From Antedon mediterranea (Eukaryota > Echinodermata > Crinoidea > Comatulida > Antedonidae): a stretch of 64,000 nucleotides of DNA. Location of the stretch: the NCBI RefSeq assembly GCF_964355755.1, contig NC_092679.1, positions 24,242,432-24,306,431 of the forward strand. Reading direction: 5' to 3'. The translations under genes and the position numbers were made by a program. Positions 154 to 23,500 of this stretch are shown here, one piece after another. Below the pieces are notes generated by a model. It did no database searches. It saw only the letters and a program-made list of their open reading frames with translations, and had not been told where the DNA came from. The first letter of the stretch is position 1. Each line of letters begins with the position of its first letter.

Positions 154-596
154 TGACAATGTCTGCAGTAGCGCAGTATCTACTCTACATTCACGGCAAG
201 TGTCTTACTCCGTCTCTCGTCAAACATCATCTCAGACGAAGTGTGGCTTTCTTAGTTGGGGCCGATGCACGGAGTATAGGTAATAACATCTATTTTGCTC
301 TCACTTGAATCAATTGATTCATTTAATGCCAAGAAAGGATTCAAAATTGATAACAAATGTTGATATGTTTATAAGTGACAGGTGCATTTAAAAGGCATAG
401 ATAGTGAAACAATAACCCAACTACATAGAGGCTGTTTAACAATACTGAGTACAATACAATTTTATCATCAAAACAATTAATTTTAATAGCCGGCAATATA
501 GCGTGGCATATCGCAGAGAGTACTACCGTGTATACTCGACAAATTACTTTTGCTGTACGGGTTGGGCCGAAGATGGACAAGGAGGATGTCCAATCG
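154..596 (+). CDS. EMI domain, two exons of the modular receptor
   Basis: Exons 154-279 and 490-596. The first reads DNVCSS..., then [20 protein letters not shown]; after the intron the reading continues with [19 protein letters not shown] and a GQGGC ending. The spaced cysteines, the W..C..YR signature, the Y..EY..VY run and the CC-GW ending are the hallmarks of the EMI (emilin-type) module that starts many extracellular multi-EGF proteins. The first exon enters in phase 2 after a TTTCTGAATACTTAG acceptor and leaves through GTAATA. Since EMI modules normally follow directly after a signal peptide, only a short N-terminal exon is probably missing before position 154. Confidence 0.8.
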
Positions 597-3500
597 GTAA
601 GTAAATCTTTGCTACAGCTAATTTTGATAAACAGTTTATAAATAGATTAACAATAGATATTAAATAAATTTATAATGATTTGTTTACAATGCTTATACAG
701 CCATATGTACAACAAACTGTGGTAGTGGAGGGGAATGCGTTTCTCCAGACGTTTGTTCTTGCTTCTCTGGATTTGAAGGATCACGCTGTAGTAGTAAGTT
801 ACTTTTAAAATATATGTTACTATTTACTAAAAAAAAAATACACATTACTATTTTGTTATTGTTTTCTTGAAACTTTGTAATTTCTGACTCCATAATTAAT
901 TAGTAGGCCCCAAAGCATATTAATACCGCACAGTAATGTTAGGACTATTGTTCACAATAATAACATATTACAGAGATTCGTACAGTAAAATCAAATAACG
1001 CTTTATATTGATTTCTAATTTTCTTGATTGAACTAATGTGTGAAGATAATACAATACACACAGCCCTAACAAAAGGTAGGCCTAAATTAAGTAGATTGAA
1101 CCTCATTTTGCACCCCTTGTAAGTGGATTCCCATAACGGAAAAATTTCTAAAAACATCTCTTAAACTAATACGGCCAGTTTTATTTTGCAGTAAGCCTAC
1201 ATTATGATTTTATGTGTGTTAATTTACCTCCAGTAAGCGGTAAACAAGTGTTTAGTGTACGCTTGGGAGAAGTTTAAACTGTATTTCTTTATAATTACAG
1301 ACATTAATGAATGTTTAGAAAACAATGGAGGGTGTCAGCAAAGTTGTATTGATACCCTAGGAAGCTTTTATTGTCAATGTTACACTGGCTACGTAGAGGC
1401 AAACAACGAATGCATAGGTAGCCTAACATATATATTCAAACTATAAGATAACATGTTCTTCTATGTTTCATCATTCTGACATAATTTGTTGGGTTCCCAA
1501 AAAAGAGAGGTTATTTTCCATGTTTTTTACAGTAAACTTTTAAACATAAGTTTCTAGCATACTATTCATTCATTTATAAACAACAAATGTATCAAGGAAT
1601 TCATAATCAGGTAATAGAAAAACCTGTTTTAAATACAAAAAAAGTGTTAGTTTTGTGAAAAGAAATAAGATTGATATCCATTGCTTTGAATGAAGTAATT
1701 GTTGGAGAATAATTAACATAAGTTGGTAAGTTATTCCATATTTTAGTGCCATATTTTAACATCAGTTTCACTTGTCTGTATTAGCTACGTGCAATTTGCC
1801 ATGTATTCACGGAGAGTGTACATCACCAGATTATTGTGATTGTGAAACTAATTATGTGGGGTCAACTTGTGACGATTGTAAGTATTTTTGCTGACTTTAT
1901 GTTACACAAACAACCTTTGTGTTCTCTTCTTTATTGTATCAAACAAAAAACAATTTAATACAAAAGGTAGCCAAGATATAGCCGAAGCTAATCAAGCTTG
2001 GTACCTTTTATCGTAACTAACTTAAGCTACGAAATCAACAAATAAATAACAGAACTTAAAAGAAAATAAAAATTTGATAACGTCAAAAACAAAACAAAAA
2101 ATGTTGAATAATAAATAAATAACATAACATAAAGTGCTGTATGTACTATACTGTTCAATAGATAATATCTGATGAATTAACAATATATAAAAACATTGTA
2201 AATTATAGATTATTCTTTTATATACTTAGATAAAAGTAATTCTTTAAGTTGTTTAGAGAAAGCAAATCTAGATGTAATTGTTCGTAATTCTAAAGGTAAA
2301 TCATTCCAAATAACAGCACCAGAAAAAGAAATTCTAAATCGTCCACAATTAATACGACAAGGGGGAATGGCTAAATTAAAATAATGATTAATTCTTGTAT
2401 TATATGCATGATCAGTAGTTTCAAAATAATCAGATAAACTATGAGGTAATCTATTATTAAATAGATCAGAAACAAATTTAGAAACACATAAGGTATATAG
2501 TTTATTTATATCTAATATTTTAAGTAAATGAAATAAAGGCAATGAATGTGTTCCAAACTTAGAAAAAGTCATACACCTGACACACATTTTTTGTGTAACT
2601 AAAAGGGGTTTTAAATACGAATCATATGTGCTACCCCATATCTCAATACCATACATTAGATGTGGCTGAATAAAAGCATTATAAAGCAAGATTAAAGTGT
2701 TCCGAGGGATATAGTGCCGTAATTTAAATAAAATACCAACCCGCTTCCTTAATTTATTGTTCAAATCAACAATGTGGTCTTTGAATGAAAGAAATTTATC
2801 CAAAATAATACCAACAAAAGAAATCGTATCCGTTTCAGAAATCTTATTATTATTTATCTTGATAGAGCCATTGATACTAATATTTTTATTTCTTGAACGA
2901 AAAACAATAAACTTTGTTTTGTCAGTATTAATTGTTAATTTATTGGCATTACACCAATTAATTACTTTTTGAAATTGTATGTTAATTTCGTCAAGATTTA
3001 ACATATTTCCAGATAAAGGTTTAAATAGGTTGGAATCATCAGCAAAAAGTCTAAAATCAAAAAAATCAGTAGAATTTGGCAAATCATTAATATAAATTAA
3101 AAACAAAATGACACCGAGCACCGATCCCTGGGGAACACCACAATTGATGGGCAATCTATCTGATATAAAGTTTCCTGAAGACACAAACTGAAATCTGTTA
3201 CTAAGATAATTAGAAATCCACTGTAGAGGATTACCTCTTACTCCGTAGTAATTTAGTTTAGAAATTCCGCTCATGTGTAAAAATACATTTATTTGTTACA
3301 CTATTGCAATATCGAAATTGTATTTAGTTGATGAATGTACAGCAACAGTGAATGGTGGATGTGCCCAGATATGCAATAACCTCTTCGGCGGATATCAGTG
3401 CGAATGCTTACCGGGACATGTCCTTTCAAATCTAACAGAATGTATAGGTAAGTAGATTTTTATGAAGTATTGTGGAAGGAAAAGTCTTTTATATTTAAAT

Positions 3501-6500
3501 TCTGTATTGCCTAAAAAATTTCAGTTAAGTATTCTTTTTGTAAATCTTTGTTTTGGCCTTTTTTTCTGGTCTCAAACTTGATAGATAGGCTTAAAGATGA
3601 TAAATAGTTTTGCTCGCAGTTTGTAAATTTGTAATTGTATATTCTTTATTTTTTTTAATGCATTTATGTATATATATATATATATATATTTTTATATTTT
3701 CTTTATAGCGTTGTGCGAACCTACGTGTGAGAACGGCGGACAATGTGTAGGAGTTAACGACTGTGATTGTCTCAATACCTACACAGGTGACAGATGCCAA
3801 TATGGTTAGTGTAGCCTTAGTTAAAGTAAAAAATAAACCAAACTATACAAATACACCTGCTATGCGCTCTTTCTAAAACTTTGCAGGAGAGATTTGTAAA
3901 GGAAAATAATTTTACCTAAATAAGAATCTTTCTGGAATAATAATTATTACACTCAACGCTTTCTTAATTTTTAATTAAATAAAAAGTACATAAACATAAG
4001 TTAAGAAATATACCTTTTCTTACGTGTTTGAAATGTCTATTAGCAAAATAGATTGATGATACAACCAGTGTTGCAATGCAATACAAAAATAATTATAATT
4101 GAATATAAAACAAGCATAACTCACAATTCTTTTTGACAGACGTCAATGAATGTGAAGTGAATAATGGCGGATGTGACCATTCTTGTGAGAACTTACCTGG
4201 ATCATTTAGATGCCACTGTTTAGATGGATTCTCCGGAACTAGTACTTGTACAGGTGAAAATATATTAAATCCTAACTAAGTTATTGACATAATCATAGTG
4301 TGTTTTTCATTCAGCCTCTTTAAATGATCACCTTCCTTCATGTTATCTTCTGATGTAGCCTACGAAAGAAAAAAAAACCAACATTAGCTTACATATCATT
4401 ATCATATCATTGTCATTGTCATTTATTTCGCCTGAAAAAAAAACCAAAATGTAAAATAATGAGGCAGGATTACGAAAATGTTTACAAGAAAAAAAAGAAA
4501 TTAATAATAACAGTCTCCACATTGCGATACACGTAGAAATATTAAATTTATATAAATATAGGCCTACATATTATGCAGTCAACAGGTTGATGCAAGCGTT
4601 TCATCGGCAATTTCCAATCAGTTTTGCGATTCATCATCATTCAGAATTCAATGAATTATAAAATATTATTTTTTTTAAAAAATAGATATTGATGAATGTA
4701 CCTTTGCAAATTGTCACAATTGTACCAATTACCAGGGAAGTTTCGAGTGTCTATGCAAAATTGGATATGAAGCCTACGATTTATACAACTGTGAAGGTAA
4801 ATTAAACAATATAAAAGTGTATTAACTACAGACAGTAGCCTAATATTTTTTAGAAATAACATTAACTTAACTTAAATGTAATCACAACATTAAATCGAAT
4901 ACAGAATTACTTTAAAAAAAAAAAAAAAGAAAATACCAGATCCTATCTTCATTGACAAAAAAAAAACCGAATTTGATAGTAATTGATCTTAACAATCTAC
5001 CACGCAAATAATAAAATAACACCTGGTTTTCTCTGAACGAATATACTCGCACAGATAGAAAGCGTTGGTTTCTGCGCATGCGTATTCAGTTTACATACTA
5101 TTTGTGATGAAAAGAAAAAACACAGACATGTTTGATTCACTTAGTACTGAAAAAAAGGTCTTAATATCTGAAAAAATGTAATGTTTTTTAAGATGTTAAT
5201 GAGTGTGAAGGTGGCGTCGATGGATGTGGCCAACTGTGTTTAAACTCAATCGGTAGCTTCAGATGTGATTGCAATGACGGATGGACACTTCAACCTGATG
5301 GAAAAGGATGTACAGGTGTGTTTTGATTTCGTTCATCATATTACGATTATGATTTAAATAATAATTTAATAATAATTTTTGTTCAACTAATTATTTCATA
5401 TAAAATCACATTGTTATATAAAAAAAATCGTTATCGTTTAAAGCCAATCCATGTGTTGAAATCGGTGTACCGTTCATGGGGAATCGAAGCTGTACTGGAT
5501 TTACAACAGGGGAATTGTGTACATTCGAATGTGAAACGAGTCATCGTCTGGAAGGTACTCAAGTCAGACACTGTCTATCAAACGGTGTTTGGAGTGGTCA
5601 AACTACTAAATGTGAAGGTTTGTTTTCTACATTTTATGTAATATAAATTATTTGTCTTGGTGCCACAGTGCAAAATTATGGCAATCGGAACTTGGCCGCT
5701 AACGTTTCACGAGTCCCCATGTATTCCAAATATAGCTCTGTCCAAAAACGTATCCTATATTAAACGGATGTTCACTAACCCCACACCAACTGTAAGGAGA
5801 GATCCAACTAATGCACGGCAAGTGATACGTACTAAACCCATAAAATTGAATAATAAATAATAATGTAATATAATAGGTCAGTATGTAATATGTATTATAG
5901 AGATTATATGTCCTGAAGTGCCATCGCCGGTTAATGGATACATTCATTTTCCATGTGAAAATAAAATTGGGGATCGCTGTAGATTTGGGTGTGATTTAGG
6001 ATTCTACTTAGAAGGTGATACTGTAACACAGTGTTTATTCGCTGGAGTTTGGAACATCACATTTCCAGTATGTAAAGGTGAGCAATTATCTACTGTACTT
6101 TAAATAATTATATTATTTTGTAAGCATATACTTTGTCACGTCCTAAAATTCAGCCGGCCCTAAAAAAGCAGTTTGTGGCTATATCACGGCTGGTGATATC
6201 AAATAAAAAGTTGAATTAAAAGTTTTTGTATAATGCATTTTTTAAATAGAAATACAAGCATGTACGCCTTCCCCATGTTTAAATAATGGTGTTTGCCAAG
6301 TATCACATCATGATATCAGGAGTTATACATGCGACTGCTCTAAAAGTGGCTATGTAAGAAACAACTGTGAGAAAAGATTTGTAACAACACCTGATTGGCC
6401 TGAGATTTGGGTAGGAGAAATTTATAATTTAACATTTTTTGCGAAGACGGAGAAAACCCTTCTATTATCAATTGAACTGGATTCCAAAAACGTGCAAATT

Positions 6501-9500
6501 GAACCATCGAACCTTCTCTTTACTGAGAAAATAAACAAACATTATGTTTCTATTAGAGGAATTGGTCAAGGATTCACAAGGATATCATACATTCTGAGAC
6601 ATGATGAATCACATAGTTTTACTACACCAGATGACGACGAAATATTTGTGTTTCAGAACCATTCTCAGATAAATTCAGAAATATTTACACCGGGGTACCA
6701 ACTACCTTCGGGTTGTTTTCTACTATTAGATCAGTCTGTATGTACACATTTTATTTCTACCGAGGAGTGGAAGACAGTTACTGGTAAAAGTAATGGAATT
6801 ACGTCTTTGGCAACAGAAACATTTGAGCTTCCCCTAAATCTCATTGGACACGCAATCGGAAGAAGCAGCAAGACCACAACAAAATTACTCAGCAATTGTC
6901 ACAGTGAAGAAATAACACTAGATGATATCCAGGCCTTTGTTCATTTTAACTCATTGTATCGCAATTACACACGTCAACTAGAACACGTTTTGCCGGAATG
7001 GATGACGTTTATATCTCTTAACATTGATCCTCGTAATGCTGATACATCATTTTCTACGTTGAGTCTGAGTGGCTCTGATGTACAATCAATCGGCTGGTGT
7101 TCCAATGCACCCGTTACAAAAGATGGCATGTACTCTGTTTATTTACTCTACAAAACACAACTTACATTAGGAGGCAGACGTGTTTCTTTGCCAAAACCAC
7201 CTTTTAAACGAAAGTATTGCTTTATAGTGGGCATATGTGAAATAACTTCTGGAACAGTGGTATTAGTTTTTCCTGAAGGTTCAAGAGATATTTTAAGTCA
7301 CATTGACGGTCTGGATCACAAACGTTCACTTGAGGTGAATGTCAATTATCTTGCGTTTTCTAAAACTAATATGCTTAATTCAAATATCAATGACAAGAGC
7401 AACATTAGCATTTTGGCCAATCTTCAATATTCTTACTATATCAACAACACAGTTTCTGCAAAGATCGAAGGTAGCGGCGATCTTCAAGTTTCTCTCGAAA
7501 ATGTAAATCAGGTGAGCATATTGTGTTCATTTAAAAGATGTATATTGTAATATTTAAAATATTTCTATTTCAGAAATAACCAAGCAAGTATACCGGTATG
7601 TTGTATTATTTTTTCTTATAGTTATTCAGTCATCTGTTTATACAACGTTGGGTTTTCAAACAATTTGGAAATTCCAAAATAAGCCTCTTCTGGAAAATGT
7701 TAGGAGAAAACATTGAGTTGCCTTTCATTTCCAAACAACAAGACCTGCTACCAACTTTGAATGCTACCGTAGGTGGTAAGTATTTGTTCGGTATGAGATA
7801 AATCATAACCACTAAAGTGCATTAAGGTCATAAAAATAGATATAAACTTCAAGCAACCAATAGCGTCTTACAAATAAGATCACAACATTGATGCTGTATG
7901 TTCCTGAGTTCTAGGCTAAATAGCATTTTTAAATGTATAATAACAACTAGATGGTGCGCTCGCTTACCTTTTTAGTAAGTATAAACCGCCGTAAAGTCCG
8001 AAAGTAACCTCGGCAAATCGAATTCGGAAGCAAGTGAGCGAGTTTTAAGCGTGTCGTAGATACGAAATGGAAAGGTTTCGATTGAAACATTTAGTCGTTC
8101 TGCATTGTGTTCGCATATCTTATTATTAAGCATGATTGTTTGCCATATACGATAATGTGGTCACTGTTTAAAACTAATAAAATTGTGAATAAAGAAATAT
8201 AATTATGTTTTATTCATTTATATTATTATATTTGTAGAAATAATACGTGATTTAATATTTTAAATTAGAAAATTAAATGTATGATATATTTTTTAATTCA
8301 TAAAACCTAACTAGAAAATTGTTCTAAAGATGCATTGGTTTACTCCTTATATTAGGTTATCCTGTTGGTGAACATTCGTTGGATCGAGGCATATTAATGG
8401 AATCGACAACGTCATTGGGTGTTTTCGACAACACACCATTTTCCTGGTTGCTTAAGACGAGCAACAGTTCAGTAAATGTCTTTCTAGATTATGACTTGAC
8501 ACCAATTCTATACACTCAATCTGATCTTAATACCTTAACAGACATTATACAAGCTCTTGAAAACAAACGAAGTGACCTAGATGATTTAGTTGAACAGCTC
8601 AATGTGATTAAATATAGAAATCTGTACTCAAATACAAAATCTGCTCTCAATTTATTACAAAAAAGCCTGAAAAAATACCATGCAGCAAAATTTCAAGAAG
8701 TGAGAACAATTAGCGACTCTTTACATGATTTACGTATACAGAATAAACTGGCATTGAACAGCCTTTGGTCGGTTATTGACACGCTCTCCGGTGATGCTAG
8801 TTTACAAATAGAGTTTCAGAGTGTCACAACTCGCTTTGAGAAGCTCAGCAATCAGGTTCTTTTTGAAGTGCAAGATATTTTTGCTCACGAAAGTACATCA
8901 GAGTCAGGATTTTACATGAATTCCGAGGTCTGTTTATCACCACACCTTTGTTTTCCGTCATTGGAAGTCAAAATCTTAAACTCATATAAGAATTGTCCAG
9001 GCCAAATTGAATCAATTTATTTAAATACGTCAAACGTCTGCTTGACAGGTGAATACAATTCAAACAAAAAGCTCAATAGATTTATTAGTATTCCTGCAGA
9101 ATCAACGTTTAGCTTAGTATTAGAATCATTTAACAACCACTGGCAAGGTAATACCCCAGTGCTTATAAATATTCTTGGTATAGAACAAGTAACGACTATG
9201 CGATTAGAAATGACGAAAATGTACTTCAGTTTTTCTGGAAAACTTTGGGATTTATTCGATATGCAAGCAAACGCCAGTTCTGACCTGAGGTCGTTGGAAT
9301 CGATGGTACTAAATGTAAATGGAGAAATTTCAGTTGAAGGTTCATTGACATTAGGAAGGATCCTCAAGGACAAAATTATTTTTCTATCACAGAAATCAGT
9401 TGATGACAGTGAACGAAGAATTAGTCAAGCTGTTAAATCTGTTGAAAAAGCCGCATTAAACTTCCGTGATGTTTCAGAAGAAGCAGCTCTAAAAGATGAA

Positions 9501-12500
9501 CATGTTGCTGAGGCTAAAACTAAATATGTGTCTGCTGAGAACGAATTTCTAGCAGCAAAAACTGCGGTTGAGATAGTGCGTCAGTCTCTGGAAAATGCCC
9601 ACTACGAAACGAAAGAGATTGAGAAATACTTGAATAATGTATGTGAAGTTTATGAGTGCAATGGTGTTTGTCTACCAGGAAGTAAAATTGTTACTATCAA
9701 AGAAGATGTTTTTGGACTTGTATCATACAAATGCTGTGCTGGTAAAACTGAAACAACAGTCATTAATGAGACAACCAGCTGTTGTTGGACTTGCTATGTA
9801 CCAACCCCAGTTAATTCCTTCGGGTTTAACCCATTTAAGCTAATTATTGGAGTTTACAAAGTTGCCACTGGTAGCTGGCTTAATGGTGTAACAGAGATTA
9901 TCGAATCTATAGGAAATAACAAACGACTGTCCTATTCAGAAGGTGTGTGCTGCAAAGAGTGTAAAAGGCCAGTTGAAATAACAGTTATGTTTGACTCGTG
10001 TAGTACATGTGTCAGAAATGAGGTCATAGGTCAAATTGAGAAACTTCAAATAGAAGAAGTTCCTTGCAGTGTACAGATACCTGACGCCAATTGTGTAAAG
10101 AATAACGAAGAATGTCGAAAGTTGCGAAGTTAGTTATTTGATCAGTTTAGAAAAACAACATTTGACTTAGCTGCTCCAATTAAAGAGTTTGATAATGCTG
10201 TTGTACGTGCATCAGTTGCAGAAGCAGCATTCAACAAAGCACTTATCGAACTAGACGATGCAATGAACCAAGAAAAAGAGGTATTAGAAAGAGTTGTGAT
10301 AACACAGAACCATCTCAACAATACTCAGGATGCATTGGATAAACTTTCTACAGATTTCGGAGCAGCGTTGGCTATAAGAGAACACCAAATCAATGGATCA
10401 CTAGAAGAAAGTTTACAGTTAAACGGACTAACTTTTAACATTGATCTTGTCGGAAAAGATACTTCTGTGATTCCAATAGTCTGTGACATGACATTGTCGT
10501 CTTTTCCTGTACTGATTCAAATATTCATTGATTTCAACAATTTAAATTATACAGTTGACAATGCAGCGCTTTTTATAACAGAAGAACTGTTCGGCGATAC
10601 AACCAGATTGATTAGACGAAATGAGATACCCCGTAAAAAACTGGATATAATAAATGGAATAATTACACAACCACCCTTTGAAACTGTCGTTTATAATATA
10701 ATCAACAACACCAATCTGAATATAACCAGAAACCTGTTACGAGATCAAAATATTGTTCAGAATGATGAGAGATGTCAAGAATTTGATGATATACTAGGTT
10801 TTGTCGAATTTTCATTTCAAACACTACTCGAAATTGTAAATATCAGTAAAATTGGTTCTATAAAAGCAATACAAAAAGAAGAAAAGTTTCAAAATCAATA
10901 CTTGTACAATTTATCTCTATTTATTTCACCAGCTGTTACAAATTACAGTTCAACATTACTCTATTTCAACTTAACTATGGATGACTTGAACAAATCTAAT
11001 GCTGGTGATGGAGTTGAGGAAAATGCGTTAACGAAAGTTATTGATTCTGCAAAGATGAAAACAAACAACACACAATCATTACTTGATGTTGATGTTCTTA
11101 GCAAATGGAAAATTGCAATGGACATCTATATCCATAATTCCAATGGTTTATCTGACTGTGAAGGGTTCTATGATTGCTTAACAACAGCGTTGATTGCTTT
11201 GAGATATATGTCAGAAGGTCGACAGAGTTTTGAGAATGCTGTGGCACTTGATGAGTATGTTTCACATTTTATATACAGCAACATGTTTACTTCAGATGTC
11301 AGTGAGGCTGAAGCAAGTAGTTTGATTGCACTGGGTCTTATACTTGTTCTTAAAGAGAATAACGATGTTTATATGAAAGAGCCTAACATTATAGAGCATC
11401 CTGAACCAAGCATTGTAGCAGTTGAAGGGGAAGATATTACACTGTCGTGCGCAGCTACTGGTAACCCTTTACCAACATTTACATGGATATTTAATGGTCA
11501 AACATTGATTGGTAGGAATTCAAACACACTGATTCTGAATCAAATAAATCCATCCGATTCTGGTAGCTACAATTGTCATGCAAGTAATTTAGTGACTTCA
11601 GTTTCGTCTTTAAATTGTGAAGTGACCGTTGAATTCGCACCATACATTCTCAAACACCCACAGGACATTGCCCTTGAACATGGCAATCTCGATGGTGTGT
11701 ATTTTACATGCGAAGCTAAAGCAGTTCCATTAGCACACTATCGATGGTACTTCCAGTCTAATACTTCATTCGATATGGAACCCATCTTCGGCCAGAATAG
11801 CTCAAGTATTGAGATAATAAGTCCGAGGTTCAGTAACGATGGGTGGTATGTGTGTGAAGCTTGGAACAAACATGGACATCGGTTTTCGAAACCCGCTAGA
11901 CTTAACATCCTTGGAATCTCGATGCCAGAGTTCTCAAGCGATATCACCATAATGCTTTACCGAGTAGAATATTTAAGTTCGAAACATACAAATAACAAAT
12001 CACTAGGAGATGTCATCAGTAGCTATGATGACGACCTAGAATTGGAGCTTCTCCATTACCAAGAGGCAAGTCCAATTGGCAAGCCATTTCTTACACAGAT
12101 CATATTTGACATCAAAAGTACCAATGCAACATCACTTGACATTGTAATTGCTAGTCGAGAAAAATCAGTTTACCAGGTAAAAGACAAGGTTGAAAGTATT
12201 CGTAAAAATGTTGTTCAACTTCAACGTTTAATGATACCTGGTGAGCTATTTGAACATCGAGGTGAAATATATGAGGTGATACAGTTCAACTCTGGTATAA
12301 ATGGACCAATATGTACCAACACTCAATATGCTCACAAAGATGGATATGTTTGTGGTGAGTTCACATTCCTACATTAAAACTATATTAAAATAAAGTATTT
12401 TAAAGTAGTAGTAGTAGTAGTAGTATTGCAAAACAAGGCCATATACATGGCTGCAGTTGCGTGCTCAAGTTAGTGTTTACCGACCAACTGACAGACCGAC

Positions 12501-14318
12501 CGACCGACTAACCGACCGACATAGTGAGCTGTAGAGTCGCGTTGCACGCGACTAATAAGGCTTTAGGATAGTGCTATTTTTTATCTATACAAAATCTGGT
12601 GATTTGAAACATTTTGTAATTCATCTAGCTGCTTTCTACTTTACCCGGTATTTGGTAATATTAGCTTTCCACTTAATTACATGGTAATATTTAAACATAA
12701 CGTAAACCATTATTTAATTTCAGTGAACTGTCGTCCAGGTTCATACCGAGGAAACGACAAGCTACCTGCAGTGTGTGAGCAGTGTCCAGAAGGATTTTAC
12801 CAGCCCAAAGAAGGACAAACAGAATGCCTGAAATGTGATGGATATGTTGAGGTTGGATCAAGAGTTTGCATCCCTAACTATAGTAAGTTATTTCAGGACT
12901 TGTGTAACTACTTGTACTCGTCTCCTAGGTTATCTACACAGAGGCATACGTTACTGACTCAATGCTGAATGTCCTGTTCTAAATCATTTGTCGATTTATG
13001 AAAATATAGTATGTATAGGATATCTTTATACACGATGGAAGTAGAGTTAAAAACATCATAAGCAAAATGGCAGTGTTATATAACGTACGTGATACGCTTC
13101 TTAATCTCAGCAGAACTTACAAATATATTTAGAATTTGATTTAGAAAAAACATTGACAAAAATTATCGTTCAATAACATTTTAAAAAGAATGAAATAAGT
13201 TAACGTTGAATGAAATGGTCCTACTCCGGAAGAATTTGCATGAACGTTGAAAACGCTCACACTAAAATCAAGAAAAACTACAAACTAAAAACCAAATACT
13301 TTGCGTACCTGACTGATAGGGGCGGAGGGAGGGGGGGAACCTAGTTAAATTATATTACTGACTGAAAACATAACAAAATAAGAATAATTCTTTAGCTACA
13401 GAGTATTTGTAACACTTTGTCAATGTTTTTTATTTATAAGGTATGACGAATATTCCTACGACCGATGACAATGAGGTAATTTAATGTTTTAACTTGATTT
13501 TTATTTTTGTTTTATAAGAAAACATTATACAGCCTAAACATTTGTTTGCGAAATGTTTGTTAAGAGTAGAGGTGAAGGATATCCTGGAATCTCTTTTCTT
13601 CTGTATTGACGTGACCAAGTCTGCGGTGAACAACTTAAACATTAAATTACGTACTGACATCTTTATATTTAAATTTTGGAATAGGACAAGTATATGTTGA
13701 TCTTCGCACTTACAGGCGGAGGATGCGCTGTGTTGATGTTAATTGTGCTTTTAATCGGTTTGTATATTTTTACAGTAATTACATACAAAAATAAATAAAG
13801 AGGTACTACATTTCGAAATTGAAATATCGGGAAATTCTATGAAAGCATTTCCAAACAAGAGAGGGCGCTATAAAACATAGTATTTCATTATTATAGAGGG
13901 CACTTTTACAACAAAATATTAGGTATTTGCTTAATAGTAAACAATGGGTATATGCCAGGCACTTCCAGCTGTTACATTGTGGCAATGCATTTTAGAGTAA
14001 ACACACTAAGGCAGTGCAGTAGAGCCTGGGTTAAGTTATACATTGTTGGGTTGTTTTTTTGTTGTTGATATAAGTTTAATCATGTGCAACTTTTTCGTTT
14101 CAGTTTACTTGAAGAAAGAAAACTGCAAGGAAGAAGATGCTAAAAGCATTAGTAAAAATGTAGAAAACAATGACGTATATTTAAATCCAGACATTGAAAT
14201 ACGAGAAATTGACAATGATGAAATGCATGAAAATGGAGTATATGCAGAACCAGACGTGATGAATACCCATGACAAGGATAAACCAACAAATGATGAAAAT
14301 GTGTATTCAGAAATTTAA
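154..14318 (+). CDS. Large modular EMI/EGF/sushi/Ig transmembrane receptor-like gene (5' partial)
   Basis: Exons I can join with consistent phase: 154-279, 490-596, 701-793, 1301-1417, 1785-1877, 3328-3447, 3709-3804, 4140-4253, 4686-4796, 5193-5315, 5444-5617, 5901-6077, 6250-7511, 7622-7775, 8356-12354, 12724-12882, 13716-13757, 14104-14318 (stop TAA). Together they give about 2,400 codons. Domain order is EMI, eight EGF exons, two sushi, one EGF, a long unassigned region with coiled coils, two Ig domains, a GCC2/GCC3-type cysteine domain, one membrane segment and a tyrosine-containing tail. EMI plus EGF repeats recalls MEGF/Draper-type engulfment receptors and extracellular-matrix proteins, but the whole architecture matches no family I can name. 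The signal peptide exon is missing upstream. An in-frame TAG at 10131-10133 interrupts the giant exon, so the locus may be a damaged allele, a sequence error or a readthrough gene. A role in adhesion or recognition is inference. Confidence 0.8.
701..5315 (+). CDS. Eight EGF-like exons alternating plain and calcium-binding type
   Basis: Each exon encodes one six-cysteine module and is phase 1 at both ends: 701-793, 1301-1417, 1785-1877, 3328-3447, 3709-3804, 4140-4253, 4686-4796 and 5193-5315. Exons 701, 1785 and 3709 are short EGF modules of the [12 protein letters not shown] or [12 protein letters not shown] kind. Exons 1301, 4140, 4686 and 5193 open with NINEC, DVNEC, DIDEC or DVNEC and have the NN..GSF.C.C pattern of calcium-binding EGF; exon 3328 opens with FDEC. 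The first five alternate plain and calcium-binding forms, which suggests duplication of a two-exon unit. Symmetrical phase-1 exons are the classic product of exon shuffling. Confidence 0.88.
1930..3275 (-). mobile_element. 5'-truncated non-LTR retrotransposon (CR1/Jockey-like LINE) reverse transcriptase fragment
   Basis: A 354-codon minus-strand reading frame (2210-3274) encodes the C-terminal part of a LINE reverse transcriptase. It starts inside the finger-palm region, has the GVPQGSVLG motif, the FADDSNLF box carrying the catalytic Asp pair, and then a thumb region of the usual type ([22 protein letters not shown]). It ends in a C-terminal region with WNDLPLELR, common in CR1/Jockey-group elements. 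The endonuclease and N-terminal polymerase are missing, so this is a dead 5'-truncated copy, though the remaining frame is intact, suggesting a fairly recent insertion. The 3' end of the element is estimated near 1930-1960. It lies in the intron between EGF exons 1785-1877 and 3328-3447, antisense to the host gene. Confidence 0.85.
5444..6077 (+). CDS. Two sushi (CCP) domain exons
   Basis: Exons 5444-5617 and 5901-6077, both phase 1 to phase 1, encode about 58 residues each. The first has cysteines at [35 protein letters not shown] and TKCE. The second has [44 protein letters not shown] and FPVCK. The G.C.F.C.....L.G....C...G.W....P.C pattern is that of sushi/complement control protein modules, with an extra cysteine pair near the N terminus of each. 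The separate exons and matching phases fit modular shuffling. Confidence 0.85.
6250..7775 (+). CDS. Ninth EGF module followed by an unassigned extracellular region
   Basis: Exon 6250-7511 begins with an EGF module ([16 protein letters not shown] through [15 protein letters not shown], near 6255-6375). The following 380 residues have no family I recognise: a beta-rich stretch ([43 protein letters not shown]) that loosely resembles an Ig-like sandwich, then regions with scattered cysteines and many N-linked sequons. The exon ends in phase 0 at GTGAGC. Exon 7622-7775 (starts [15 protein letters not shown]) continues it and ends in phase 1 at GTAAGT. The beta-sandwich idea is inference from residue pattern only. 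Confidence 0.7.
7776..8355 (+). other. Intron of the modular receptor with a low-complexity/repeat-like stretch
   Basis: Between exons 7622-7775 and 8356-12354. It contains a stretch near 7945-8110 of higher GC content than its surroundings (CTAGATGGTGCGCTCGCTTAC onward) that looks like a dispersed repeat; the ACAACTAGATG string also occurs in reverse at the distal end of the element at 15250-15560. The rest is AT-rich with no reading frame worth noting. Confidence 0.4.
8356..12354 (+). CDS. Giant 4-kb exon: coiled coils, Cys-rich block, two Ig domains; carries an in-frame TAG
   Basis: One uninterrupted 3,999-nt exon, phase 1 at both ends, apart from a single in-frame TAG at 10131-10133. Upstream of the stop (8358-10130) there is an unassigned globular part, a heptad-rich Ala/Glu/Lys segment near 9385-9630, and a cysteine-rich block near 9635-10080 with CC, CCWTC and VCCKECK clusters. 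Downstream, a second alpha-helical segment (about 10135-10390) mirrors the first, followed by another unassigned region. Two I-set-like Ig domains close the exon: about 11380-11635 ([26 protein letters not shown]) and 11636-11912 ([22 protein letters not shown]). Metazoan extracellular domains are rarely packed in so long an exon, which may point to a retroposed or expanded ancestral segment (inference). Confidence 0.75.
10131..10133 (+). other. In-frame TAG stop inside the giant receptor exon
   Basis: The codon follows AAG TTG CGA AGT and precedes TTA TTT GAT CAG. The same frame is open for about 590 codons before and 740 after it. No GT..AG pair close to the stop removes it while keeping frame: the two tightest candidate introns (17 and 25 nt) are too short for animals and both lead to new stops. 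Confidence 0.8.
12355..12723 (+). other. Receptor intron with (TAG)n microsatellite and dispersed element copy A
   Basis: The intron has a GTGAGT donor and a TTTCAG acceptor. It carries a short AGT/TAG repeat at about 12405-12425, then copy A of the short element at 12432-12555, including its CCGACCGACCGAC-type tract. Confidence 0.6.
12432..12555 (+). repeat. Short dispersed element, copy A (GTCGCG/GACCGACC family)
   Basis: Begins AACAAGGCCATATACATGG, then CTGCAGTTGCGTGCTCAAG, TTAGTGTTTACCGACC, a run of GACC units, GACATAGTGAGCTGTAGAG and TCGCGTTGCACGCGACTAA. The same order of blocks occurs at 15251-15358 (reverse), 38902-39006 and, diverged, 42952-43174. Imperfect inverted blocks near the ends (AGTCGCGTGC in other copies versus GCACGCGACT) suggest a fold-back or MITE-like unit. 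Confidence 0.7.
12724..12882 (+). CDS. Ephrin-receptor-like (GCC2/GCC3-type) cysteine module exon
   Basis: A 159-nt phase-1 exon. It reads [28 protein letters not shown] and [14 protein letters not shown]. The C.PG.Y.......C..CP.G.YQ...GQ..C..C pattern is that of the tyrosine-protein kinase ephrin type A/B receptor-like module, also found in SVEP1 and SCUBE-type proteins next to EGF and sushi domains. It is the last extracellular module before the membrane segment. Confidence 0.82.
12883..13715 (+). other. Receptor intron, mostly featureless
   Basis: Long intron between the cysteine-module exon and the membrane exon. It has G-rich stretch GGGGCGGAGGGAGGGGGGG near 13319-13338 and a possible but phase-incompatible mini-exon at 13441-13475. 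I see nothing else. Confidence 0.4.
13716..14318 (+). CDS. Membrane-spanning exon and tyrosine-containing cytoplasmic tail
   Basis: Exon 13716-13757 (phase 1 to 1) encodes [13 protein letters not shown], and exon 14104-14318 continues with [12 protein letters not shown], so the hydrophobic stretch is followed by basic residues as expected for a type I membrane protein. The donor GTTTGT of the small exon is weak. The 70-residue tail is acidic and has three tyrosines in signalling-like contexts: VYLNPD (Tyr codon 14178-14180), VYAEPD (14241-14243) and the C-terminal VYSEI (14304-14306), immediately before TAA. YxN and YxxI resemble SH2-docking motifs of the Grb2 and Src type respectively; that they are phosphorylated is inference. 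Reading through the weak donor would instead end the protein after ITYKNK. Confidence 0.75.
13758..14103 (+). other. Last receptor intron
   Basis: Between the membrane exon and the tail exon. It opens with GTTTGTATATTT, an atypical donor, and ends with TTTTTCGTTTCAG. No repeat or reading frame stands out. Confidence 0.45.
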
Positions 14319-17506: not shown

Positions 17507-20500
17507 GTAAGCGATACTAACTTGTGTTTGTGAAAAGCCGATTCTTATATGGTATCATGTTTAGCGGCAATAAACATCCTACTGTATCGTGTCTGTTGAC
17601 GGCAACCCTTACCCCAACCTCACCCCTAACCCCACCATAGGACCTAACTCGTTAATATTTAACTTAATCTAAACTATATAACATTTCACTATTTTATGAA
17701 GGAAAAAACCATAACCATAACTTGGGTAAGTAAGTAATATGTGTTGCTTTCCATGAACAGTACAATTTATGAAACAGCATAAAAATGAATGAAAATAAAC
17801 ACATAGAATAATACAAAATATGAGAAATTAAACATGGAAAGCAGGGGATTACCCTTAAGCCCAAAGGCTTGTTGTAAACATGGAAAGCAGGGGATTATCC
17901 TTTAAGCCCAAAGGCTTGTTGTAAACATGTAAAGCAGGGGATAACCCTTTAAGCTTAACGGCTTGTTGTAAACATGGAAAGCAGGGGATAACCCTTTAAG
18001 CCCAAAGGCTTGTTGTAAACATGGAAAGCAGGGGATAACCCTTAAGCCCAAAGGCTTGTTGTAAACATGGAAAGCAGGGGATAACCCTTAAGCCCAAAGG
18101 CTTGTTGTAAACATGGAAAGCAGGGGATAACCCTTTAAGCCCAAAGGCTTGTTGTAAACATGGAAAGCAGGGGATAACCCTTAAGCCCAAAGGCTTGTTG
18201 TAAACATGGAAAGCAGGGGATAACCCTTAAGCCCAAAGGCTTGTTGTAAACATGGAAAGCAGGGGATAACCCTTTAAGCCCAAAGGCTTGTTGTAAACAT
18301 GGAAAGCAGGGGATAACCCTTAAGCCCAAAGGCTTGTTGTAAACATGGAAAGCAGGGGATAACCCTTAAGCCCAAAGGCTTGTTGTAAACATGGAAAGCA
18401 GGGGATAACCCTTAAGCCCAAAGGCTTGTTGTAAACATGTAAAGCAGGGGATAACCCTTTAAGCCCAAAGGCTTGTTGTAAACATGGAAAGCAGGGGATA
18501 ACCCTTTAAGCCCAAAGGCTTGTTGTAAACATGGAAAGCAGGGGATAACCCTTTAAGCCCAAAGGCTTGTTGTAAACACGGAAAGCAGGGGATAACCCTT
18601 TAAGCCCAAAGGCTTGTTGTAAACACGGAAAGCAGGGGATTACCCTTTAAGCTTAACGGCTTGTTGTAAACATGTAAAGCAGGGGATAACCCTTTAAGCT
18701 TAACGGCTTGTTGTAAACATGTAAAGCAGGGGATAACCCTTTAAGCCCAAAGGCTTGTTGTAAACACGGAAAGCAGGGGATTACCCTTTAAGCTTAACGG
18801 CTTGTTGTAAACATGTAAAGCAGGGGATAACCCTTTAAGCTTAACGGCTTGTTGTAAACATGTAAAGCAGGGGATAACCCTTTAAGCCCAAAGGCTTGTT
18901 GTAAACACGGAAAGCAGGGGATTACCCTTTAAGCTTAACGGCTTGTTGTAAACATGTAAAGCAGGGGATAACCCTTTAAGCTTAACGGCTTGTTGTAAAC
19001 ATGTAAAGCAGGGGATAACCCTTTAAGCCCAAAGGCTTGTTGTAAACACGGAAAGCAGGGGATTACCCTTTAAGCTTAACGGCTTGTTGTAAACATGTAA
19101 AGCAGGGGATAACCGTTTAAGCTTAACGGCTTGTTGTAAACATGTAAAGCAGGGGATAACCCTTTAAGCTTAACGGCTTGTTGTAAACATGTAAAGCAGG
19201 GGATAACCCTTTAAGCTTAACGGCTTGTTGTAAACATGTAAAGCAGGGGATAACCCTTTAAGCTTAACGGCTTGTTGTAAACATGTAAAGCAGGGGATAA
19301 CCCTTTAAGCTGGGGATAACCCTTTAAGCTTAACGGCTTGTTGTAAACATGGAAAGCAGGGGATAACCCTTTAAGCTTAACGGCTTGTTGTAAACATGGA
19401 AAGCAGGGGATTACCCTTTAAGCCCAACGGCTTGTTGTAAACATGGAAAGCAGGAGATAACCCTTAAGCCCAAAGGCTTGTTGTAAACATGGAAAGCAGG
19501 GGATAACCCTTTAAGCCCAAAGGCTTGTTGTAAACATGGAAAGCAGGGGATAACCCTTAAGCCCAAAGGCTTGTTGTAAACATGGAAAGCAGGGGATAAC
19601 CCTTTAAGCCCAAAGGCTTGTTGTAAACATGGAAAGCAGGGGATAACCCTTAAGCCCAAAGGCTTGTTGTAAACATGGAAAGCAGGGGATAACCCTTAAG
19701 CCCAAAGGCTTGTTGTAAACATGGAAAGCAGGGGATAACCCTTTAAGCCCAAAGGCTTGTTGTAAACATGGAAAGCAGGGGATAACCCTTAAGCCCAAAG
19801 GCTTGTTGTAAACATGGAAAGCAGGGGATAACCCTTAAGCCCAAAGGCTTGTTGTAAACATGGAAAGCAGGGGATAACCCTTAAGCCCAAAGGCTTGTTG
19901 TAAACATGTAAAGCAGGGGATAACCCTTTAAGCCCAAAGGCTTGTTGTAAACATGGAAAGCAGGGGATAACCCTTTAAGCCCAAAGGCTTGTTGTAAACA
20001 TGGAAAGCAGGGGATAACCCTTTAAGCCCAAAGGCTTGTTGTAAACACGGAAAGCAGGGGATAACCCTTTAAGCCCAAAGGCTTGTTGTAAACACGGAAA
20101 GCAGGGGATTACCCTTTAAGCTTAACGGCTTGTTGTAAACATGTAAAGCAGGGGATAACCCTTTAAGCTTAACGGCTTGTTGTAAACATGTAAAGCAGGG
20201 GATAACCCTTTAAGCCCAAAGGCTTGTTGTAAACACGGAAAGCAGGGGATTACCCTTTAAGCTTAACGGCTTGTTGTAAACATGTAAAGCAGGGGATAAC
20301 CCTTTAAGCTTAACGGCTTGTTGTAAACATGTAAAGCAGGGGATAACCCTTTAAGCCCAAAGGCTTGTTGTAAACACGGAAAGCAGGGGATTACCCTTTA
20401 AGCTTAACGGCTTGTTGTAAACATGTAAAGCAGGGGATAACCCTTTAAGCTTAACGGCTTGTTGTAAACATGTAAAGCAGGGGATAACCCTTTAAGCCCA

Positions 20501-23500
20501 AAGGCTTGTTGTAAACACGGAAAGCAGGGGATTACCCTTTAAGCTTAACGGCTTGTTGTAAACATGTAAAGCAGGGGATAACCGTTTAAGCTTAACGGCT
20601 TGTTGAAAACATGTAAAGCAGGGGATAACCCTTTAAGCTTAACGGCTTGTTGTAAACATGTAAAGCAGGGGATAACCCTTTAAGCTTAACGGCTTGTTGT
20701 AAACATGTAAAGCAGGGGATAACCCTTTAAGCTTAACGGCTTGTTGTAAACATGTAAAGCAGGGGATAACCCTTTAAGCTTAACGGCTTGTTGTAAACAT
20801 GGAAAGCAGGGGATAACCCTTTAAGCTTAACGGCTTGTTGTAAACATGGAAAGCAGGGGATTACCCTTTAAGCCCAACGGCTTGTTGTAAACATGGAAAG
20901 CAGGAGATAACCCTTAAGCCCAAAGGCTTGTTGTAAACATGGAAAGCAGGGGATAACCCTTTAAGCCCAAAGGCTTGTTGTAAACATGGAAAGCAGGGGA
21001 TTACCCTTTAAGCCCAAAGGCTTGTTGTAAACATGGAAAGCAGGGGATAACCCTTTAAGCCCAAAGGCTTGTTGTAAACATGGAAAGCAGGGGATTATCC
21101 TTTAAGCCCAAAGGCTTGTTGTAAACATGGAAAGCAGGGGATTACCCTTTAAGCCCAACGGCTTGTTGTAAACATGGAAAGCAGGGGATAACACTTTAAG
21201 CCCAAAGGCTTGTTGTAAACATGGAAAGCAGGGGATAACACTTTAAGCCCAACGGCTTGTTGTAAACATGGAAAGCAGGGGATTACCCTTAAAGCCCAAC
21301 GGCTTGTTGGAAACATGGAAAGCAGGGGATTACCCTTTAAGCCTAACGGCTTGTTGTAAACATGGAAAGCAGGGGATTACCCTTTAAGCCCAACGGCTTT
21401 TTCCCAAAGGGGTCTCCAGTGGGGATTTAACCAAGTTCTATACTTGGAAAGCTAAAGCAATAACAAATATTACGAGCAGATATAGGCTTATGGAATGAAG
21501 TCTGTTGTCATACCACATGCGCATTTCTGGTCGTGATGTGGATATGGTTTCTCTTTTTATTGACACAAGTATATGATATCAAGTTAAACTTACCTGTAGT
21601 AGTAACAGCCTAGTATCATAAAGTTGGTTTGTTAGGCCACGAGTTACATACACCTGAACGTCCAAAAAACTCCATAGTTGTGGTATATAGACCTACGTGA
21701 CTATAATTATAGCAATTATATCAGTTCGTAATTTTGTTGACACAATTCTAAAACTACATTTTCTTTCTTAGATCGTAGATGATAATGTTGATCCTGAAAT
21801 GACGTTACTGACGTATCTCCGTATAAAATGTATCCTTTCAGAAACATTGGTGTTGATAGGCTACAGTTTGGGGTTCTGAAACAAAACAAAAACAATTTTC
21901 TTCGATTGTACAAACATCATATCATTATATTGAGTTTCGCCTTGCAAACTATCAATATTATGCTTTTTGATATAAAAGTTACATTTTTTAAAGTAGGCCG
22001 ATATTCAAAGTTAGAGTATCAAGCAATAATATGCCTCCAGGACATTGAGAGTTCGGACTATTACCTACCGGAAAACTACCTTTTTTGAGGACAACAACCA
22101 TCCCGGTAACTAACACACTCCACCCGGGGGACCGGCCCGTACGACGTGGGATGCGTGTACGTACGTTACTATAAGGGAAATTATTATTAGGGTATTTGGT
22201 CTATTAGATGTCATAGGGTCCTAAGGGGTAATTAGGGGTAGACATGATTAAAATGAGGGTGCAGCACACGATTCTAGATTCTGACTCTGACTATCGTGTG
22301 ACGAGTACAAAGCAGGACGCAACACAAATCCAAGCTATTAACACTTGATATGAATATAAACGAACTGAAAAGAATATCTAATCCATTCATAATAACAATC
22401 TTCCTCAACAAACAACAGTATGATAAAGGTTAGTAGCGTAGATATTGCCTTGACCTAAGAACACTTTTAAATCCATTGACAAATAAATTGCTGATAAAAT
22501 ACTTCAGGTATTAATAGGCAAATATTTATTATTCAACGTTGACCATTATCATTGTCCGTAGTGTGGTCAGTTACACAGATCGTAGGCTATCATTGTCAGT
22601 ATGGTCAGCCAGTTACACCATGGAGGAAAAAATAATAATAATTATTATTTTTTCCTCCATGGTTACACGGATCGTAGGCTGTAAACAATAATTCGATCGT
22701 CTTCAGCCAACCGTACCTATAATTGAAAATTCCACCCACAAAAGAGTATACAGAACTCCTTCTTTGGGACACCCACCTCTATTATTCAGGAGTAAGGGTA
22801 CAATTTCCGTTAAAATGAACGATCGGGAATATATGTTTTAACACGTTTACAGGGAACATTATGCCTACTACTTGTTTTTTTCACTATTAAATTATGGAGG
22901 CACTTTGTTTGGTCCCGAAAATGTCCCTTACCGAGAGATTCTACTGTACACGTGATAGTATTTAAAATAGTCAAAATCAACACAAAACGGAACTCATGCC
23001 CGTTAATACTTTAACCGAATAGTTTTCTTTTGGTTTGATTGTGCAAAATCAATATTACAATGTTATCGTTAGTTTTCATCACGCTGAATAACAATGTACC
23101 TCAATTTTTGTTGCAACAAATATAACTAACAATAGGAAATCAAAAGGATCACTATATTACTGTTTAAACTGGCGGATTTCAATAAACCTTGAAATACTCC
23201 GCAGGATTTCCTCATGCATAGCCATTTTGTCAACGATAAATTTTGTTTTGATTGTTCATGCCACTTATTTTGTACAGTATTTTCCAGGGAAGGTTCTCAT
23301 AGCTTTATGCTCGAAAGCTTTTACTAACGGTCCATGGTGTTCAAAGGAGGTGTGTGTGTTCAAATAAATATAATAGGCCTAATACGAAAAAATACAACAC
23401 AAGTAATATAAAATGATAGAATTCATTAGAAATTGTGTAAAAAGGCTTGGTAAATAGATCGTGGAAGGCAGTGAACTTGATAGAAATGTGTTGTAATACA

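What the first reader, a model, noticed from the sequence alone, without database searches (positions are those of the whole stretch)
6376..11379. About 1,650 unassigned extracellular residues inside a new EMI-EGF-sushi-Ig membrane protein
The sequence shows recognisable modules on both sides of a long central part with paired coiled-coil-like helices (about 9385-9630 and 10135-10390) around a cysteine-rich block with CC, CCWTC and VCCKECK clusters, largely in one 4-kb exon. I know no family with this order of domains. The EMI start and the tyrosine tail suggest a surface receptor, possibly in recognition or engulfment; that role is inference.
Basis: partly seen in the sequence, partly recalled or inferred. 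Interest (0 to 1): 0.75.

Follow-up and report, generated by a model that had tools for sequence, protein, structure and literature searches.

The report
Ten-copy family of giant surface receptors

Summary
The window holds 19 predicted exons (a signal-peptide exon lies 0.9 kb upstream) of a single-pass protein: EMI, eight EGF, two sushi, a ninth EGF, an unassigned stretch, two Ig, 144 more unassigned residues, an ephrin-receptor-like module, membrane helix and tyrosine tail. The unassigned stretch is about 1,440 residues, not 1,650. It has two heptad-periodic helices around a 16-cysteine block; Pfam and solved structures give only weak or coiled-coil-type matches. The family has ten loci in this genome, eight with the 4-kb exon unbroken; six pairs compared show purifying selection. 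Other animals' genomes could not be searched.

Two things were missed. This copy has an in-frame TAG (10131-10133) that would end it as a secreted protein of about 1,570 residues, yet shows no sign of decay on either side, so the stop is recent, allelic, an assembly error or read through. And eight of eight intact copies carry a furin-type site R-x-[KR]-R before the Ig domains; this copy has none. A surface receptor fits; engulfment is untested, and NPxY is absent from the four tails found.

The parts
154..279 (+). exon: EMI domain, first half (the signal-peptide exon is outside the window, about 0.88 kb upstream)
   Evidence: EMI PF07546 E 1.1e-7; splice sites and phase; signal-peptide exon in L019 and in 4 of 4 paralogues examined
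490..596 (+). exon: EMI domain, second half
701..793 (+). exon: EGF 1
1301..1417 (+). exon: calcium-type EGF 2
1785..1877 (+). exon: EGF 3
3328..3447 (+). exon: EGF 4
3709..3804 (+). exon: EGF 5
4140..4253 (+). exon: calcium-type EGF 6
4686..4796 (+). exon: calcium-type EGF 7
5193..5315 (+). exon: calcium-type EGF 8
5444..5617 (+). exon: sushi 1
5901..6077 (+). exon: sushi 2
   Evidence: PF00084 E 9.2e-12, two stretches in the protein
6250..7511 (+). exon: EGF 9, then about 379 unassigned residues
   Evidence: 10 loci in the genome; alignment A3; beyond EGF only weak matches (PDB E 0.14 and up; two Pfam families in one member each, E 0.049 and 0.085)
7622..7775 (+). exon: 51 unassigned residues
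   Evidence: splice sites and phase; no Pfam or NCBIfam match, one PDB match at E 0.61
8356..12354 (+). 3,999-nt central exon, open in 8 paralogues, interrupted here
8530..8900 (+). helix-like stretch with 3.5-residue hydrophobic periodicity
   Evidence: 7 of 2000 shuffles
9363..9635 (+). coiled-coil-like helix 1
   Evidence: 6 of 2000 shuffles; PDB matches here are mostly coiled-coil chains, E 0.083-10; helix in a low-confidence model
9624..10130 (+). cysteine block, 16 Cys with conserved spacing
   Evidence: 16 Cys in 7 of 9 copies, 15 in L011, 14 in L017; no convincing match (ribosomal S14 at E 0.24; one Pfam match in one member at 0.049)
10131..10133 (+). in-frame TAG stop codon
   Evidence: sense codon in all 8 intact paralogues
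10134..10436 (+). coiled-coil-like helix 2
   Evidence: 11 of 2000 shuffles; helix in a low-confidence model
10437..11378 (+). unassigned region; holds the furin-type site R-x-[KR]-R in 8 of 8 intact copies, absent here (aligned place about 10590-10680)
   Evidence: no PDB match at E up to 10; site pattern
11379..11924 (+). two Ig domains
   Evidence: PF13927 E 2.9e-28, two stretches
11925..12354 (+). second unassigned region, about 144 residues
   Evidence: alignment A6; best PDB match E 0.07, an ATP synthase subunit
12724..12882 (+). exon: Ephrin_rec_like module (two such modules in L009, L010, L011, L012)
   Evidence: PF07699 E 3.1e-6
13441..13475 (+). short linker exon (predicted)
   Evidence: splice sites and phase only
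13685..13757 (+). exon: membrane helix
14104..14318 (+). exon: cytoplasmic tail with YLNP, YAEP and YSEI motifs, and the natural stop

Best explanation
The locus is one member of a ten-copy family of very large type I membrane receptors. Shown by sequence: predicted signal peptide, N-terminal EMI-EGF-sushi arm, a conserved middle of about 1,440 residues of unknown fold, two Ig domains, an ephrin-receptor-like stalk, one predicted membrane helix and, in the four tails found, a closing tyrosine motif of the type N-[VI]-Y-[ST]; purifying selection; a furin-type site in all eight intact copies. Inferred: the two helices of about 90-100 residues, joined by the 16-cysteine block, fold back as a hairpin with the cysteine block at its tip; the precursor is cut at the furin-type site into an N-terminal chain and an Ig-bearing membrane chain; ligand binding by the arm or tip is passed to SH2 proteins through tail tyrosines, so it serves as an adhesion or recognition receptor. 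The window copy was under the same constraint as its sisters for most of its history, and now carries a stop that is a young or segregating null, a sequencing or assembly error, or is read through. If real and not read through, it yields a secreted protein of about 1,570 residues without helix 2, Ig domains and anchor. It also lacks the furin-type site.
For: Ten loci; unbroken exon in 8; dN/dS 0.35-0.36 in four close pairs, 0.26 and 0.27 in two distant pairs; window branch ratio of codon positions 1+2 to 3 is 0.404 before and 0.420 after the stop, against 0.35-0.69 in the eight intact copies (150 bootstraps, difference -0.14 to 0.18); 25 of 26 invariant Cys and 7 of 7 Trp kept; complete predicted splice sites; signal-peptide exon in 5 of 5 loci examined; furin-type site 8 of 8 against none in the window copy; heptad periodicity in 3 of 9 stretches tested.
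Against: No transcript, protein or other species was available. The hairpin is not modelled with confidence: the single-sequence AlphaFold2 model had mean pLDDT 40.7, the two helices at block means of about 40-78, nothing for the cysteine block, and a further helix at pLDDT about 30 where none is expected. Of 10 loci scanned, a membrane helix was picked up in 7 and a tail in 4. The silent sites are near saturation in the window comparison (dS 1.2 against L012). Ligand and signalling are not shown by anything. By my rough reckoning the bootstrap bound leaves room for unconstrained evolution over about a fifth of the window branch.
Confidence: 0.68

Rival explanations
1. The coiled-coil helices serve to oligomerise the protein, as in EMILINs and multimerins, and the product is a matrix or adhesion protein rather than a signalling receptor.
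For: EMI at the N-terminus and coiled-coil stretches resemble multimerin (PMC8881648, passages seen); heptad periodicity.
Against: No C1q domain found at E up to 0.1; a membrane helix and tail follow instead. The two helices are of similar length (91 and 101 residues) and joined by a conserved cysteine block, which suits a hairpin as well.
Confidence: 0.25
2. It is an engulfment receptor of the CED-1/Draper/MEGF10 type.
For: EMI, EGF modules, one membrane helix and tail tyrosines.
Against: No NPxY in the 4 tails found, YxxL only in L011; several EGF modules are of the calcium type and are followed by sushi and Ig modules that those receptors lack (recalled).
Confidence: 0.12
3. The window copy is a settled pseudogene.
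For: In-frame TAG; furin-type site absent; another copy at C5:20.74 Mb is broken by several stops.
Against: All other predicted exons, splice sites and the signal-peptide exon are intact; no relaxation before or after the stop.
Confidence: 0.25
4. The stop separates two genes, or marks a naturally secreted form with a distinct downstream gene.
For: In the window the frame ends at 10131-10133. Botryllus fuhc was likewise first read as one gene and then split into a secreted and a membrane gene (PMC3691228, listing and passages seen).
Against: In 8 of 8 intact copies one exon runs through this point without a stop.
Confidence: 0.05

Closest known systems
CED-1 / Draper / MEGF10 engulfment receptors
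   Same: EMI domain, EGF modules, single membrane helix, tail tyrosines
   Different: no NPxY in the four tails found; sushi, Ig, ephrin-receptor-like modules and an unassigned middle of about 1,440 residues are extra
EMILIN / multimerin family
   Same: N-terminal EMI, EGF (multimerin-1), coiled-coil stretches
   Different: no C-terminal gC1q; predicted membrane anchor and two Ig domains; cysteine block between two helices
Botryllus FuHC products
   Same: EGF and Ig modules, secreted versus membrane-bound products
   Different: far larger, with EMI, sushi and the unassigned middle; no sequence comparison could be made here
SVEP1/SNED1-type EGF-sushi proteins (recalled)
   Same: EGF, sushi and ephrin-receptor-like modules mixed in one chain
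   Different: no membrane helix or Ig domains in those, to my recall; not compared by any search

Membership tests
CED-1/Draper/MEGF10 engulfment receptors | N-terminal EMI domain | tested here: met
   PF07546 above cut-off in 4 of 4 sequences submitted
CED-1/Draper/MEGF10 engulfment receptors | NPxY motif in the tail (PMC8092387, passages seen) | tested here: not met
   absent from the 4 tails found: window, L009, L011, L012; tails not located in the other 6 of 10 loci scanned
CED-1/Draper/MEGF10 engulfment receptors | ITAM or YxxL motif | tested here: inconclusive
   one YSTL in L011, YFEI in L012, none in L009; window has YSEI, YLNP, YAEP
CED-1/Draper/MEGF10 engulfment receptors | drives uptake of dying cells | not testable with these tools
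   needs cells or animals
EMILIN/multimerin | N-terminal EMI domain | tested here: met
EMILIN/multimerin | coiled-coil region | tested here: met
   heptad periodicity in 3 of 9 stretches tested; no experimental support
EMILIN/multimerin | C-terminal gC1q domain | tested here: not met
   no C1q match at E up to 0.1; membrane helix and tail instead
Botryllus FuHC | sequence relation to FuHC proteins | not tested
   no FuHC sequence was at hand
Proprotein-convertase-processed receptors | conserved R-x-[KR]-R site in the ectodomain | tested here: met
   met in 8 of 8 intact copies, not met in the window copy; cleavage itself not testable here

The most novel reading that the evidence does not exclude
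A previously undescribed animal recognition-receptor family in which a long helical hairpin presents a 16-cysteine tip that diversifies between tandem copies (in the C10 trio the cysteine block carries 2.8-3.5 times the odds of amino-acid-changing differences of the rest of the exon), with furin-type processing, and in which single copies can become secreted decoys by a stop codon.
Probability: 0.15. Interest if true: 0.72.

Novelty: new variant of a known kind. Interest (0 to 1): 0.5.

Why it matters
About 1,440 residues of conserved, selected extracellular protein without a convincing match in the family and structure libraries searched is a sizeable gap in the catalogue of animal receptor domains. 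The family is multi-copy, partly in tandem arrays, and its cysteine block is the fastest-changing part of one array, so it is a testable candidate for adhesion or self/non-self recognition in this animal. The window copy is a test of whether a stop can turn such a receptor into a secreted form.

Tried and rejected
Nothing found: relatives of the helix-cysteine part (alignment A4, or one sequence of it) in viral contigs (21 pattern matches, none confirmed), in prokaryote genomes (46 pattern matches, none confirmed), phages and plasmids. The other unassigned parts were not searched there, and none of these collections holds animals, so this says nothing about other animals. Internal duplication in the unassigned part: six profile-profile comparisons gave nothing convincing; helix 1 against helix 2 is weak, probability 7%. 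A cystine-knot or VWC reading of the cysteine block, suggested by its CxGxC and PVxITV patterns (recalled), had no support. NCBIfam and PHROGs gave, for 8361-10130 and its paralogues, a surface-exclusion protein (4 of 9 members, best E 1.3e-6), a phage tape-measure family (4 of 9, best E 1.8e-5) and single-member matches to a histidine kinase (2 of 9), SMC-like, ATP synthase b and RecN models, and Pfam one member to YvbH_ext at E 0.00075; I read these as coiled-coil likeness, since members disagree and the window sequence itself has none at E up to 0.01. The two structure predictions were too poor to search with (mean pLDDT 40.7 and 37.3), so no fold search was made. Positive selection in the cysteine block: stretch 9918-10272 in L009/L010 has more replacement than silent change, but not significantly (p 0.26); in L014/L016 the same stretch has significantly less (p 8e-5); silent change is also raised in 2 of 3 trio pairs, which points to gene conversion elsewhere or older divergence; the C5 pair shows no excess (p 0.44). 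A hidden intron around the stop was considered by eye and left: it would remove sequence conserved in the other copies. Naming the animal failed: no COX1 match, the 18S search gave errors, a genome-size text search gave 0 papers. Literature searches for the domain order gave 0, 1 and 2 papers, and a recognition-family search gave 1; judged from listings only, none bears on this. A scan for AATAAA was of no use.
Full report
The sequence. The finding covers part of a gene on the plus strand. Six-frame reading shows a 434-codon frame at 6246-7550, a 601-codon frame at 8328-10133 and a 747-codon frame at 10134-12377. The last two are in the same reading frame and are separated only by a TAG at 10131-10133.

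Gene model. Comparing translated segments with four paralogues and checking splice signals gave 19 predicted exons inside the window, from 154 to 14318. I chose the boundaries so that every joint has AG and GT and the phases chain; a first choice for the last small exons broke the frame and was corrected. The linker exon rests on splice signals alone. A search of 6 kb upstream for a short exon with a start codon, a hydrophobic core and a phase-2 donor gave a single signal-peptide exon of 21-23 residues (up to the choice of start codon) in each of five loci examined: the window gene, about 0.88 kb before the window, and four paralogues. All five end in S-[AVI]-P-x-x-G. The predicted product is 22 + 2,449 residues, with the stop at residue 1,549 of the second part.

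Known modules. EMI is above Pfam's cut-off in four of four sequences submitted. EGF_CA, EGF and two sushi repeats are found before the middle, two Ig domains after it, then Ephrin_rec_like, a membrane helix and a tail. Four paralogues (L009, L010, L011, L012) have two ephrin-receptor-like modules.

The unassigned part. Single sequences and nine-sequence alignments were compared with Pfam, the sequences of solved structures and NCBIfam; PHROGs was used for the 8361-10130 part only, and the list was capped at 60 of 266 sequences, the 60 shown being matched in the Ig region. Outside EGF and Ig the matches are of coiled-coil type or weak and scattered; the strongest, in some paralogues and not in the window sequence, are a surface-exclusion model at E 1.3e-6 and a phage tape-measure family at 1.8e-5. 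In one search, profile positions 316-438, around helix 1, match mostly coiled-coil chains such as myosin, NEMO, tropomyosin and ELKS at E 0.083-10; the best match of that call is an esterase elsewhere at E 0.042. Hydrophobicity averaged over nine copies is periodic at 3.45-3.65 residues in helix 1 (6 of 2000 shuffles), helix 2 (11 of 2000) and a third stretch at 8530-8900 (7 of 2000); the other six stretches tested, the cysteine block and Ig domains among them, are not (1020 to 1640 of 2000). The EGF 9 exon was not tested for this. The cysteine block has 16 cysteines with closely similar spacing in 7 of 9 copies, 15 in L011 and 14 in L017. A single-sequence AlphaFold2 model gives helices on both sides at low to moderate confidence and nothing in between; the 144 residues after the Ig domains gave no usable model.

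The family. The genome (354 Mb, 18 contigs, unnamed) holds ten loci: three in a row at C10:4.10-4.15 Mb, three at C5:20.71-20.79 Mb (one broken), and single copies on C1, C6, C9 and at C10:24.25 Mb, the window. Searching with another copy gave the same ten, plus one decayed fragment at C5:20.736 Mb. Eight copies have an uninterrupted central exon of about 1,345 codons. Whole-exon dN/dS was computed for six pairs: 0.35-0.36 in four close pairs, 0.26 and 0.27 in two distant ones, where dS is 0.7 and 1.2.

Is the window copy dead? At the stop all eight intact copies have a sense codon. On a fixed tree the window branch has a ratio of changes at codon positions 1+2 to position 3 of 0.404 before the stop and 0.420 after it; the eight intact copies range from 0.35 to 0.69. 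This used 1,291 gap-free codon columns (567 before, 724 after) of 1,374; columns with a gap in any copy, and the stop, were dropped. In 150 bootstraps the difference after minus before is -0.14 to 0.18. The window copy keeps 25 of 26 cysteines, 7 of 7 tryptophans and 26 of 29 glycines that are invariant in the other eight; L017, a copy on a similarly long branch, keeps the same numbers against its own set. So the gene was maintained through most of its history. The stop must be recent, segregating, an error, or read through; these cannot be told apart here.

A processing site. Between helix 2 and the Ig domains, eight of eight intact copies have at least one R-x-[KR]-R; the window copy has none anywhere in the exon, though basic residues remain at the place. 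That such a site is a furin-type cleavage signal is established knowledge (recalled); cleavage is inferred.

Rate differences. In the C10 tandem trio the cysteine block has more replacement differences than the rest of the exon in all three pairs (odds 2.8, 3.5, 3.4; p 3e-7, 1e-10, 2e-11), but silent differences are raised too in two of three pairs (p 1e-6, 0.001), and the one C5 pair tested shows no excess (p 0.44). This may be gene conversion sparing the block rather than selection.

Comparison with known systems. CED-1, Draper and MEGF10 have EMI and EGF-like domains and an NPxY motif with an ITAM or YxxL in the tail (PMC8092387, passages seen). Tails were found here in four of ten loci; none has NPxY. 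Multimerin-1 has EMI, EGF, coiled coil and gC1q (PMC8881648, passages seen); gC1q was not found here. Botryllus fuhc encodes a secreted protein with two EGF domains and a membrane protein with three Ig domains (PMC3691228, passages seen); no sequence comparison was possible. Searches for papers describing this domain order found none that bears on it, judged from listings, in an open-access library only.

Verdict. A real and apparently undescribed family of large single-pass receptors, a new arrangement of known modules around a long region of unknown fold. The role in recognition is plausible and untested. Other animals' genomes could not be searched, so whether the family is confined to this lineage is open.

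Noticed in passing
window 2210-3295, minus strand: A reverse-transcriptase frame (PF00078, E 3.4e-12), probably a LINE-type retrotransposon fragment, lies in the intron between EGF 3 and EGF 4.
   Followed up: partly
window 17829-21399: A tandem array of a 47-base unit, about 76 copies, 90% matches, about 3.5 kb after the gene; it creates long spurious frames on the minus strand.
   Followed up: no
window 36474-41051 and 50832-54923: Exons of molybdenum hydroxylases (xanthine dehydrogenase / aldehyde oxidase type): MoCoBD_1 and MoCoBD_2 in the first stretch, FAD_binding_5 and Ald_Xan_dh_C in the second, an order that suggests two neighbouring genes.
   Followed up: partly
L018 (G000:C5:20736001-20746000): A broken copy of the family with several stops and frame breaks between two copies whose central exon is intact, and a decayed fragment beside it at C5:20736076-20736492.
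   Followed up: partly
L014/L015 (C5:20.78-20.79 Mb): In this copy about 12 kb separate the EGF 9 exon from the central exon, against about 0.3-0.85 kb in eight others measured between frame ends.
   Followed up: no
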